Source of the DNA: Thermoleophilia bacterium
GTDB taxonomy: Bacteria > Actinomycetota > Thermoleophilia > Gaiellales > Gaiellaceae
NCBI GenBank assembly: GCA_025929895.1
Contig: JAICPI010000006.1
Span: forward strand, 1 to 64,000
DNA: 64,000 nucleotides
Reading direction: 5' to 3'
The position numbers and the translations under genes are program-made. A model generated the notes under the pieces. The model made no database searches and had not been told where the DNA came from. It saw nothing but the letters and a program-made list of their open reading frames with translations. Positions 55,571-58,985 of the stretch are shown here, piece by piece. Position 1 is the first letter of the stretch. Each line of letters starts with the position of its first letter.

Positions 55571-58153
55571 CTATGCCCTGGTCCGGCGCCGGCCGCGCTG
55601 CGCCGGGCCCCGCGAGCGGCGGTCGGCCAGGAGCTCGATCGCACGCTCGAAGCTGAGCGACTCGACCTCGTCACCGGGGCGAAGGCTCGCGTTCGTCTCG
55701 CCGTCGGTGACGTACGGCCCGAACCGCCCGCTGCGCACGACGATCTTCTTCTCGCTCGCCGGGTCGACGCCCAGCTCGCGGAGCGGGCCGGCCGCCGCGC
55801 CCCTGCGCCGACGCTCCTTCGGCTTCGAGAGCAGCTCCAGCGCCTGCTCGAGCGTGACCGTGAAGAGCTGGTCCTCGCTCTCGAGCGAGCGGGTCTCGGT
55901 GCCCTTCTTGACGTACGGCCCGAAGCGGCCGTTCAGCGCCTCGACGTCCTCGCCGTCGGAGGGATCGGGGCCGAGCACGCGCGGGAGCGACATCAGCTTG
56001 ACGGCGTCGTCGAGCGTGAGCGTCTCGATCGACATCGACTTGAAGAGCGACGCCGTCTTCGGCTTGCCTTTCGCGTCCTCGGGGAGGACCTCCGTCACGT
56101 AGGGACCGAACCGCCCCGTGCGCGCGACGAGCGTACGGCCCGTCTCCGGATGCACGCCGAGCTCGCGGTCGCCCGACGGTGCGGCGAGCAGCTCCTTCGC
56201 CTTCTCGAGCGTCAGCTCGTCGGGGGCGAGGTCGGGCGGGACGCCGGCGCGTTCCTCGCCGCGCTCGACGTAGGGCCCGTAGCGGCCGACTCGGAGCACG
56301 ACGTCCTCGCCGATCGGGATCGTGTTCACGGCGCGCGCGTCGATCTCGCCGAGCGCCTCCACGAGCTCCTTGAGCCCGGCACCCTTGCCGTCGTCGCCGA
56401 AGTAGAACCGCCGCAGCCACTCGACCCGGCCCTCGTCCCCGGCCGCGATGCGGTCGAGGTCGTCCTCCATGCTCGCGGTGAAGTCGTAGTCGACGAGATG
56501 CCCGAAGTGCTTCTCGAGCAGCGTCACGACCGAGAACGCGAGGAAGGACGGCACGAGCGCGGTCCCGCGCTTGAACACGTAGCCGCGGTCGAGGATCGTG
56601 CCGATGATCGCGGCGTAGGTCGACGGGCGGCCGATGCCGCGCTCCTCGAGGGCGCGCACGAGCGTCGCCTCGGTGTAGCGCGGAGGCGCCGACGTCGAGT
56701 GGCCTTCGGCGGTGAGCTCCTTCGTCTCGACCTCGTCGCCCTCGTCCAGGTTCGGCAGCGGACGGCTGTCCTCGTCGTCGGCCGGGTCGTCCTTGCCCAC
56801 CTCGTAGGCGGCGAGGAAGCCAGGGAAGGTGATCACGGTGCCGGCGGCGCCGAGCTCGACGTCCTCGCCGTCGCTCGACGTGGCCGCCAGCCGCAGCGAG
56901 ACGGTCTGACCGCGCGCGTCTGCCATCTGCGAGGCGATCGTGCGCTTCCAGATCAGCTCGTACAGCGCGAGCTGGTCGCGGTCGAGCTCGCCGCGGAGCT
57001 CGTTCGGCGTGCGGAAGTGGTCCCCCGCGGGGCGGATCGCCTCGTGCGCCTCCTGCGCGTTCTTGACCTTGCGCTCGTAGCGCCTCGGCGAGCTCGGGAC
57101 GTAGTCCGCGCCGTAGAGCTCGGTGACCTGCTTGCGAGCCGCGGCGACCGCCGCCTGCGAGAGCGAGGTCGAGTCGGTGCGCATGTAGGTGATGTAGCCG
57201 TTCTCGTACAGACGCTGCGCGACGCGCATGGTCGTCTGCGACGAGTAGCGGAGCTTGCGGCTCGCCTCCTGCTGGAGCGTCGCGGTGCGGAACGGCGCGG
57301 CCGGGCGTCGCGTGTACGGCTTCTCGTCCTTGCTCCGGACGCTGAAGCGGGCGTTCCCGAGCCGCTCGCAGAGCGCGCGCGCCGCCTGCTCGTCGAGCTG
57401 GACGAGATCGGCGGTCTTGGGCAGGCCGTCCGGGCCGAAGTCGGAGCCGCGCGTGACGCGCTTGCCGTCGAGCGCGACGAGCCGCGCCCGGAAGGCGCCC
57501 GGGTCGAACAGCCCCTCGAGGTCCCAGTACGAGACCTCGACGAAGGCGATCCGCTCCCGCTCCCGCTCGACGATCAGCCGCGTCGCGACGGACTGCACGC
57601 GCCCGGCCGAGAGACCTTGCGTGACCTTCTTCCAGAGCACCGGCGAGACCTCGTAGCCGTAGAGGCGATCGAGGATCCGCCGCGTCTCCTGCGCGTCGAC
57701 GAGACGGTCGTCGATCTCGCGCGTCTCGCCGAGCGAGCGCTGGATCGCGTCCCGCGTGATCTCGTGGAAGACCATGCGGCGGACCGGGACCTTCGGCTTC
57801 AGGACCTCGAGCAGATGCCAGGCGATCGCCTCGCCCTCGCGGTCCTCGTCCGTCGCGAGCAGGAGCTCGTCGGCCTGCTTGAGCTGCTTCTTCAGGTCGT
57901 CGACCGTGCGCTTCTTGTCCTTGTCGACGAGGTACAGCGGCTCGAACTCGTCCTCGATCGCAACGCCCATCGTCCCGTACTTCGCGCGCTTCTCCTTCGG
58001 AATCTCGCTCGCCCGGTTCGGGAGGTCGCGGATGTGGCCGACGCTCGACGCGACGGTGTAGCCGGCACCGAGGTAGCCCGAGATCGTCCGCGCCTTCGCG
58101 GGCGACTCGACGATCACGAGGCGGTTGCCCACACCTTGTTCTTTGTCGGCCAT
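55571..58153 (-). CDS. topA: DNA topoisomerase I
   Basis: An 860-residue type IA topoisomerase that relaxes negative supercoils. The Toprim domain starts LVIVESPAKA with the acidic triad TDEDREGE at 101-108; the active-site Y323 is in YITYMRTDST. The C-terminal part lacks the zinc-finger cysteines of enterobacterial TopA and instead carries at least four TGRFGPYV-type repeats (GRYGPYV, GRFGPYVTE, GRFGPYVKK, GRFGPYVTD) and a final Lys/Arg-rich tail, the actinobacterial layout. ATG at 58151-58153 gives MADKEQGVGN; an upstream in-frame ATG is less likely. Confidence 0.95.
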   Translation of the reverse strand: MADKEQGVGNRLVIVESPAKARTISGYLGAGYTVASSVGHIRDLPNRASEIPKEKRAKYGTMGVAIEDEFEPLYLVDKDKKRTVDDLKKQLKQADELLLATDEDREGEAIAWHLLEVLKPKVPVRRMVFHEITRDAIQRSLGETREIDDRLVDAQETRRILDRLYGYEVSPVLWKKVTQGLSAGRVQSVATRLIVERERERIAFVEVSYWDLEGLFDPGAFRARLVALDGKRVTRGSDFGPDGLPKTADLVQLDEQAARALCERLGNARFSVRSKDEKPYTRRPAAPFRTATLQQEASRKLRYSSQTTMRVAQRLYENGYITYMRTDSTSLSQAAVAAARKQVTELYGADYVPSSPRRYERKVKNAQEAHEAIRPAGDHFRTPNELRGELDRDQLALYELIWKRTIASQMADARGQTVSLRLAATSSDGEDVELGAAGTVITFPGFLAAYEVGKDDPADDEDSRPLPNLDEGDEVETKELTAEGHSTSAPPRYTEATLVRALEERGIGRPSTYAAIIGTILDRGYVFKRGTALVPSFLAFSVVTLLEKHFGHLVDYDFTASMEDDLDRIAAGDEGRVEWLRRFYFGDDGKGAGLKELVEALGEIDARAVNTIPIGEDVVLRVGRYGPYVERGEERAGVPPDLAPDELTLEKAKELLAAPSGDRELGVHPETGRTLVARTGRFGPYVTEVLPEDAKGKPKTASLFKSMSIETLTLDDAVKLMSLPRVLGPDPSDGEDVEALNGRFGPYVKKGTETRSLESEDQLFTVTLEQALELLSKPKERRRRGAAAGPLRELGVDPASEKKIVVRSGRFGPYVTDGETNASLRPGDEVESLSFERAIELLADRRSRGPAQRGRRRTRA

Positions 58154-58184
58154 CCGGTCCACCTTAGCCTGGGTTGTCAAGGAA

Positions 58185-58342
58185 CTCGTTCCGGGACGGG
58201 GCCTCGGTGTCGGGGGTGCGATGGGTGGTGCGAGGCAAGGACGCAGGGAGCGCTCGTATCAGGAGATACGGGCGCGACTGAGGACGCAGCGTCGCGCCGC
58301 TCAGCGCGGCCCGACGACTCAGTGGCTCGTTCCCGGGACGGG
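58185..58342. repeat. Structured non-coding element flanked by direct repeats
   Basis: A 158-base non-coding stretch between divergent topA and acyltransferase genes. It is bounded by near-identical direct repeats CTCGTTCCGGGACGGG (58185-58200) and CTCGTTCCCGGGACGGG (58326-58342). Inside is a hairpin with an 11-bp stem (58250-58260 with 58265-58275; one G-U pair) and an AGGA tetraloop, followed by overlapping alternative hairpins: GCGCGAC...GTCGCGC and GCCGC...GCGGC. The pattern suits a structured RNA, attenuator or small repeat element; no function can be assigned. The two flanking gene starts have no other recognisable promoter. Confidence 0.5.
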
Positions 58343-58364
58343 TTCCTGGGCATGATTCGGCGCC

Positions 58365-58985
58365 GTGGCTCCGCGACCTTCGCCCTTCTACTACGCCATC
58401 GGAGCGGTGTCCCTTCCGATCATGCGTCTGCTCTATCGCCCCAAGGCCGTCGGCCTCGAGAACGTGCCGCGCGAGGGGGGGTTCGTCCTGGCCGCGAACC
58501 ACGTGTCGAACTTCGACCCGTGGGCGGTCGGCCTGCCGCTCTTTCCCTGGCGGTTCCTGCGCTTCATGGGCAAGTCGGAGCTCTTCTGGTTCCCGCTCGG
58601 GGCGATCATCCAGGCGGGCGGCGCCTTCAAGGTGCGGCGCGGGCAGGCGGACGCCGAGGCGATCGCGACCGCGGCGCGGCTCGCGCGCGAGGGACATGCT
58701 GTCGTGATGTTCCCGGAGGGGACGCGCCGCAAGAAGGGGCTCGTCAAGAAGTGGCAACCGCGCGCCCACACGGGCGCCGCGCGCATCGCGCTCGACGCCG
58801 GCGTGCCGTTGATCCCCGCGGCGATCAAGGGCACCGACGCGCTGCGGACGCTCGGGCCGCTCCGGGTCGCGTACGGCGCGCCCGTCCCGCTCGACGACCT
58901 GGGTGGACGTGAGCCGCGCGAGGCCGCGCAGGAGGCGACCGACCGGCTGATGGCCGAGATCGCCCGCCTCGAGGCCACGTTGTGA
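58365..58985 (+). CDS. 1-acyl-sn-glycerol-3-phosphate acyltransferase family protein (PlsC-like)
   Basis: A 206-residue acyltransferase. The catalytic motif NHVSNFD (H46, D51) and FPEGTRRKKG are intact; LIPAAIKGTDAL is the third PlsC block. A hydrophobic N-terminal segment (FYYAIGAVSLPIMRLLY) would dip into the membrane. It makes phosphatidic acid from lysophosphatidate (family role). The GTG start lies 22 bases past the end of the structured repeat element. It overlaps the downstream nuclease gene by four bases (GTGA). Confidence 0.9.
   Translation: MAPRPSPFYYAIGAVSLPIMRLLYRPKAVGLENVPREGGFVLAANHVSNFDPWAVGLPLFPWRFLRFMGKSELFWFPLGAIIQAGGAFKVRRGQADAEAIATAARLAREGHAVVMFPEGTRRKKGLVKKWQPRAHTGAARIALDAGVPLIPAAIKGTDALRTLGPLRVAYGAPVPLDDLGGREPREAAQEATDRLMAEIARLEATL

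What the first reader, a model, noticed from the sequence alone, without database searches (positions are those of the whole stretch)
58185..58342. Structured element with direct-repeat borders upstream of plsC-like gene
The element has near-perfect 16/17-base direct repeats at both ends and a strong 11-bp stem with AGGA loop plus competing GC hairpins. It occupies most of the space between divergent topA and the lipid-synthesis gene. It could be a repeated mobile element or an RNA regulator (AGGA in the loop looks like a hidden ribosome-binding site).
Basis: partly seen in the sequence, partly recalled or inferred. Interest (0 to 1): 0.52.

Follow-up and report, generated by a model that had tools for sequence, protein, structure and literature searches.

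The report
Thermoleophilia hairpin MITE with exchangeable ends
The structured stretch between topA and a plsC-like gene is one copy of a small transposase-less jumping element that folds into a single long hairpin; it is scattered through many genomes of one bacterial class and seems to keep its folded centre while its outer ends differ between copies.

Summary
Window 58180-58347 (168 bp) is one of 25 matches in its own genome. All copies fold as one long hairpin; 33 of 51 pairs show two-sided compensatory changes, and a 17+17-nt internal loop is nearly invariant. The element is an insertion: the topA/plsC spacer is empty in the same-genus genome, and no element is found beside topA in 8 further orthologues. 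Relatives carry 0-47 detected copies; a 4.6-Mb Thermoleophilia genome carries at least 150. In that genome the ends (CAGGCTGCTGA..) and 4-bp YTAR target duplications match 13 copies of a resident IS5-family insertion sequence, so I read the element as a MITE mobilised in trans. Unusual: the hairpin core is conserved while the outer ~12-20 bp come in several unrelated types, even within one genome, and G.T pairs exceed A.C pairs about 3:1, so one strand is the folded one. A plsC riboregulator or hidden ribosome-binding site is not supported: the copy lies upstream of both -10-like boxes, orientation to genes varies, the AGGA loop is not conserved. No transposase partner was found in the window's own genome. 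What the core does is unknown.

The parts
58180..58347 (+). whole hairpin element (MITE copy, end type II), 168 bp
   Evidence: empty-site alignment with the same-genus genome, BLAST flanks join at this interval; fold
58180..58200 (+). left outer arm / terminal inverted repeat AGGAACTCGTTCCGGGACGGG
   Evidence: pairs with the right arm; the variable, covarying part in other copies
58326..58347 (-). right outer arm / terminal inverted repeat
58235..58251 (+). 5' strand of the conserved internal loop, GCAAGGACGCAGGGAGC
   Evidence: near-invariant in 24 aligned own-genome copies and in relatives
58274..58290 (+). 3' strand of the conserved internal loop, GCGACTGAGGACGCAGC
58250..58275 (+). tip hairpin, 11-bp stem, AGGA loop; stem covaries, loop not conserved
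58161..58166 (-). conserved -10-like box of topA (TAAGGT on the - strand), outside the element
   Evidence: conserved in orthologues; promoter function inferred
58351..58356 (+). -10-like box CATGAT, 8 nt before the GTG of plsC (GATACT-type box at this place in relatives), outside the element
   Evidence: promoter function inferred
55571..58153 (-). topA (start chosen at MADKEQ)
58365..58985 (+). plsC-like acyltransferase gene, GTG start

Best explanation
A non-autonomous mobile element (MITE). A transposase supplied in trans recognises its terminal inverted repeats and inserts it at TA-centred targets, mostly YTAR, duplicating the target (shown by anatomy in one genome, G065, with its matching IS; inferred for the window's genome). 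Because YTAR contains TAA/TAG on one strand or the other and is rare in these GC-rich genomes, many insertions land exactly on stop codons; the window copy instead fell between the two divergent -10-like boxes of topA and plsC. The unit is a palindrome with a conserved folded centre. I think the folded + strand, most likely as RNA, is under selection, because pairs are kept by compensation and G.T pairs far outnumber A.C pairs. The outer 12-20 bp are exchangeable modules, so that one core lineage has used several different ends. What binds the internal loop is not known.
For: 25 matches in G000. Precise empty site of the window copy in G001, contiguous flanks, and no element in 8 further topA orthologues. 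Of 17 other G000 copies whose flanks were searched in G001, 6 had a spanned empty site, 1 was occupied, 10 were unresolved. G065: at least 150 copies; ends CAGGCTG[CT]TGA..; in the 26 of 30 examined copies that could be parsed, YTAR stands on both sides in 15 and the 4-mers are identical in 12 (shuffle mean 5.7; 1 of 2000 shuffles reached it); 13 IS copies with ends CAGGCTGCTGAAAAAG have YTAR on both sides in 13 and identical 4-mers in 11. The IS protein is an IS5-family transposase (NF033581, 242.6 bits; DUF772, DDE_Tnp_1). Covariation; orthologous copy G000/G001: of 65 pairs 9 changed, 5 by two-sided compensation, 2 one-sided and kept, 2 broken. G.T 725 vs A.C 211 in 148 copies (inner and outer arms summed); + strand more stable in 131 of 147 copies. 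L002 has type I ends but a core closer to type II (0.87 vs 0.82).
Against: No partner IS was found in the window's own genome: no DUF772 protein in G000, a homologue of the G065 transposase in only 2 of 101 relatives, and type I end matches in G000 lead to element copies, deleted derivatives or lone end-like matches, not to an IS. MAGs lose multicopy IS, so this is weak. The window copy has no clear target duplication (CAAG left, CTGG right) and its end type (II) shows no significant duplication as a group. Type I shows only a weak excess (5 identical 4-mers of 37, shuffle mean 3.1). Strand asymmetry is absent in family f2 with the short span used, weaker (9 of 11) with the full one. Copies are related, so sign tests overstate independence.
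Confidence: 0.85

Rival explanations
1. A cis-acting RNA regulator (riboswitch-like, or a hairpin hiding a ribosome-binding site) that controls the gene downstream, here plsC.
For: Strong covarying fold with a near-invariant internal loop and one folded strand.
Against: Gene context is mixed: of 152 copies -|- 61, +|- 29, +|+ 27, -|+ 16, rest incomplete or overlapping; codirectional copies are more often antisense (63) than sense (28) to the operon. Upstream of the -10-like box of plsC; absent from orthologous spacers. AGGA loop not conserved.
Confidence: 0.04
2. A REP/REPIN-type palindrome spread by a Y1 (RAYT) transposase, or another element moved as a folded single strand (IS200/IS605-like, attC-like).
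For: Long hairpin, one strand preferred, location next to stop codons, Y1_Tnp proteins in 39 of 61 relatives.
Against: 4 of 23 genomes with 10 or more copies have no Y1 match, and genomes with Y1 but no copy exist, e.g. G008, G037. 4-bp target duplications and a DDE IS with the same ends in G065. No leading/lagging bias evident in G065: 74 + and 76 - copies, skew sampled coarsely from 12 stretches.
Confidence: 0.05
3. The compensatory changes come from mutation, not selection: template switching within a palindrome corrects one arm by the other (this rivals the selected-fold part, not the MITE part).
For: The arms are long near-perfect inverted repeats, and deletion derivatives show that they recombine. 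It would also explain symmetrical end exchange.
Against: Such correction gives Watson-Crick pairs and no strand preference, yet G.T exceeds A.C about 3:1; the mismatched internal loop is not corrected. A mixture of both is possible.
Confidence: 0.3
4. A host-useful regulatory or protein-binding repeat (transcript processing, terminator) that is kept at many sites, mobility being incidental.
For: A fixed orthologous copy stays paired between two species; many copies abut stop codons.
Against: 7 of 18 copies tested are absent in the same-genus genome, 1 shared, 10 unresolved; YTAR targeting explains the stop codons; several relatives have no detected copy.
Confidence: 0.12

Closest known systems
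bacterial MITEs in general, e.g. Correia/NEMIS and ERIC (review PMC10969869, passages seen)
   Same: <500 bp, terminal inverted repeats, direct repeats from target duplication, intergenic, transcripts predicted to form stable hairpins, moved in trans by an IS, copies inserted into one another
   Different: here the centre is conserved and the ends vary; GC-rich (about 70%) and not AT-rich; one near-invariant internal loop; class-wide spread
bcr1-bcr18 repeats of the Bacillus cereus group (PMC3446304, passages seen; primary papers not read)
   Same: multicopy intergenic repeats, MITE-like (bcr1-bcr3), some with conserved secondary structure and found in UTRs and operons
   Different: one host group only; sequence not compared here; no end-type exchange known to me
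IS5-family insertion sequence of G065 (NF033581 transpos_IS5_4)
   Same: first ~11-13 bp of the ends and YTAR target duplications
   Different: 1429-1431 bp, codes for a transposase; interior unrelated to the hairpin
REP/REPIN elements with RAYT (Y1) transposases
   Same: extragenic palindromes near gene ends, high copy number
   Different: 168 bp rather than 20-40 bp (REP size from the abstract of PMC3733652 in the listing), DDE-type target duplication, no tight link to Y1 proteins

Membership tests
MITE | short, no conserved protein-coding capacity | tested here: met
   inserts of 158-178 bp against empty sites; the 76-aa ORF across it (58125-58355) starts outside the element, and copies differ by indels and substitutions
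MITE | terminal inverted repeats | tested here: met
MITE | dispersed multicopy with insertion polymorphism | tested here: met
MITE | target-site duplication | tested here: met
   met in G065 (12 of 26 identical 4-mers vs 5.7 by shuffling); some type I copies perfect CTAG (L031, L033). For the window copy itself: not seen
MITE | autonomous IS with the same ends and target | tested here: met
   met in G065 only; not found in the window's genome
MITE | movement in trans by that transposase | not testable with these tools
   needs an experiment
IS5-mobilised MITE (window copy) | ends match a resident IS5-type IS | tested here: not met
   no DUF772 match in G000; its end type is II, for which no IS was found
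REP/RAYT | presence follows a Y1 transposase | tested here: not met
   4 of 23 genomes with >=10 copies lack a Y1 match
cis-regulatory RNA / riboswitch | constant sense position in 5' UTRs of related genes | tested here: not met
any Rfam family | match above gathering score | tested here: not met
   0 in the window; only tRNAs above gathering in 5 loci
integron attC | conserved R boxes at the outer ends, variable centre | tested here: not met
   the reverse is seen: variable ends, conserved centre; attC features recalled

The most novel reading that the evidence does not exclude
The unit of inheritance is the folded core, not the transposon ends: a selfish structured nucleic acid (probably an RNA) that has persisted across a class of bacteria by repeatedly taking on the terminal repeats of different TA-targeting insertion sequences, its internal loop being the binding site of a host or transposition factor.
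Probability: 0.3. Interest if true: 0.8.

Novelty: new variant of a known kind. Interest (0 to 1): 0.52.

Why it matters
MITEs are usually defined by their ends, the interior being regarded as decayed filler. Here the interior is conserved across a class and beyond while the ends differ, which asks what a transposase-less element gains from a folded strand and how both ends can be exchanged at once. The family is large (at least 150 copies in one 4.6-Mb genome) and has no Rfam match, it abuts stop codons of many genes, and contigs end within or beside several copies. Five paper searches gave no paper that I recognised as describing it; the library lacks most subscription journals.

Tried and rejected
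Plain repeat finder on 57900-58600 found nothing because of the indel. Rfam: nothing. Plasmid and phage collections by blastn: no match; viral contigs by pattern: one contig (L225). Y1 transposase as the mover: not tightly linked. Leading/lagging-strand preference in G065: none evident. A 3-bp YTA duplication was my first reading of L043/L044; YTAR with 4 bp fits G065 better, and types II and III remain unsettled (2-3 bp). Orthologue alignment with MAFFT failed on the long gap; the BLAST coordinates were used instead. The context tables use a home-made gene finder whose starts are approximate. End typing is rough: 177 copies, 129 with the same type at both ends (I 37, II 23, III 36, IV 30, V 3), 40 'mixed' and 8 untyped; many of the mixed, and a few assigned family-f2 copies, are chance hits of short consensus strings. 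One search was a failed regex version of it. The tip-helix count printed used a wrong offset and is not used. In one search, 27 of 183 candidate hits were dropped for lacking one exact motif (some of them reverse-strand matches of the same hairpin), then 4 duplicates, leaving 152. In one search, 7 family-f2 copies were skipped because the end pattern was not found, leaving 11. Copy numbers are lower bounds (56, 150 and 8 candidates scored per genome).

Full report
What was checked. Folding shows that these are parts of a single 168-nt hairpin, 58180-58347, of -117.0 kcal/mol as + strand RNA and -78.4 as - strand. The direct repeats arise because the outer inverted repeat contains a near-palindrome.

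It is a repeat family. A search of the window's own genome (2.64 Mb, 115 contigs) gave 25 matches; a covariance model built from 24 of them (R1, 128 positions) gave the same number, one of them cut by a contig end. In a RNAalifold consensus 33 of 51 pairs have at least one two-sided change; against 500 shuffles the covariation score is 0.430 versus 0.179 and none reached it, and sliding partners by 1-3 columns gives at most 0.151. The exception is a stretch near the tip, GCAAGGACGCAGGGAGC opposite GCGACTGAGGACGCGGC, which hardly varies and forms an internal loop.

Distribution. R1 found copies in 38 of 61 relatives (this total counts the own genome), 1 to 47 per genome with copies, including other families of the order. 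In 396 genomes of the phylum 23 had a match: the own genome, 3 of the family, 8 of the class and 11 from two families outside the class. G065 (FR_37, one contig of 4.6 Mb) has at least 150 copies, some in tandem, spaced 163-167 bp.

It is an insertion. topA of the window has 9 strong orthologues. R1 finds the element beside topA only in the window's own locus. In the same-genus genome G001 the flanks are contiguous: TTGTCAAG|AGGGCA.. against TTGTCA[element]GGGCA... Flanks of 17 further copies were searched in G001: 6 gave a spanned empty site, 1 an occupied one, 10 no decision. The insertion lies between a conserved TAAGGT box before topA and a GATACT-type box 6-8 nt before plsC in several relatives; I infer divergent leaderless promoters, so the element is probably not in either mRNA.

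How it moves. In G065 most of 30 examined copies begin CAGGCTG and end CAGCCTG/C, flanked by YTAR. Of 26 parsable copies 15 have YTAR on both sides and 12 identical 4-mers; shuffling gives 5.7 on average and 1 of 2000 shuffles reached 12. The same genome has 13 near-identical IS copies of 1429-1431 bp with ends CAGGCTGCTGAAAAAG and YTAR on both sides in all 13, identical in 11. Their 389-aa protein is an IS5-family transposase. This is the textbook relation of a MITE to its IS. In the window's genome perfect CTAG duplications flank L031 and L033, but no partner IS was found. YTAR contains stop codons, which explains why copies abut stops: among the 24 G000 copies many neighbouring genes end within 1-3 nt of the element.

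Exchangeable ends. The outer 12-20 bp fall into several unrelated types: I GAGGGTTTGGCG, II GA[AG]CTCGTTTC (the window copy), III GTG.CCC.., IV CAGGCTG, and a different one in family f2 (GATGATTGATC). G000 holds types I, II and III. L002 has type I ends but a core more like type II copies (0.87 vs 0.82). The typing is rough (see Tried and rejected), and that ends were exchanged, rather than diverged, is an inference.

One strand is the folded one. Counting mismatch types on arms aligned with Watson-Crick scoring only, 148 copies have 725 G.T against 211 A.C; 116 copies have more G.T, 25 more A.C. By genome set the excess is present in G000, family and GTDB copies but not in the f2 set (53 vs 65); by gene context it is not significant in the 16 divergent copies. 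+ strand RNA is more stable in 131 of 147 copies. Between G000 and G001 the one shared copy has 9 changed pairs of 65: 5 compensated on both sides, 2 kept on one side, 2 broken. Selection on the folded strand is the simplest reading; template-switch correction of palindromes is a serious rival for the compensation but not for the strand asymmetry. Codirectional copies are antisense to their operon in 63 and sense in 28 (p = 3e-4, copies not independent), as if the + strand hairpin were disfavoured in mRNA.

Literature seen. Review of prokaryotic MITEs (PMC10969869, passages); bcr repeats in B. cereus (PMC3446304, passages); Gaiella occulta genome (PMC6741124, passages: no mention of such repeats); otherwise search listings only. 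The YTAR target of IS5 elements, template-switch correction and attC anatomy are recalled.

Verdict. A real, large and seemingly undescribed MITE family of Thermoleophilia; the kind is known, the conserved folded core with differing ends is the unusual part.

Noticed in passing
L312, L313 (G065:C1:1543600-1544250 and 1554900-1555500): Elements inserted into other elements, at both loci between GAGGC/CAGGC and GGACG of the older copy's conserved internal loop.
   Followed up: partly
L371, L372, L373, L374, L375, L377, L379, L380 (G000): Short derivatives, some 58-59 bp, that keep type I ends but have lost most of the interior, with different break points; palindrome deletion or mini-MITEs.
   Followed up: partly
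L384, L385, L388 (G003): A variant with about 50 bp (GAGTTCGC..GCGAACTC..GGGAACCCACCCACC) placed in the conserved core, in at least three places.
   Followed up: no
L309 (G065:C1:2135900-2136550): Two and a part tandem copies just upstream of what looks like rpsK, after a gene ending KKKAK, i.e. inside a ribosomal protein operon.
   Followed up: no
L225 (IMG/VR contig, 15.7 kb): One copy on a contig classed as viral.
   Followed up: no
G049 C140, C3, C97, C93, C132; G000 C45: Several contigs end within or a few bases from a copy, as if assemblies broke at the hairpin.
   Followed up: no
L326-L338 (G065): Thirteen near-identical copies of an IS5-family IS, 1429-1431 bp, YTAR target.
   Followed up: yes
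window 58150-58370: topA and plsC seem to have overlapping divergent leaderless promoters (TAAGGT and GATACT boxes) conserved in relatives; the insertion separates them.
   Followed up: partly
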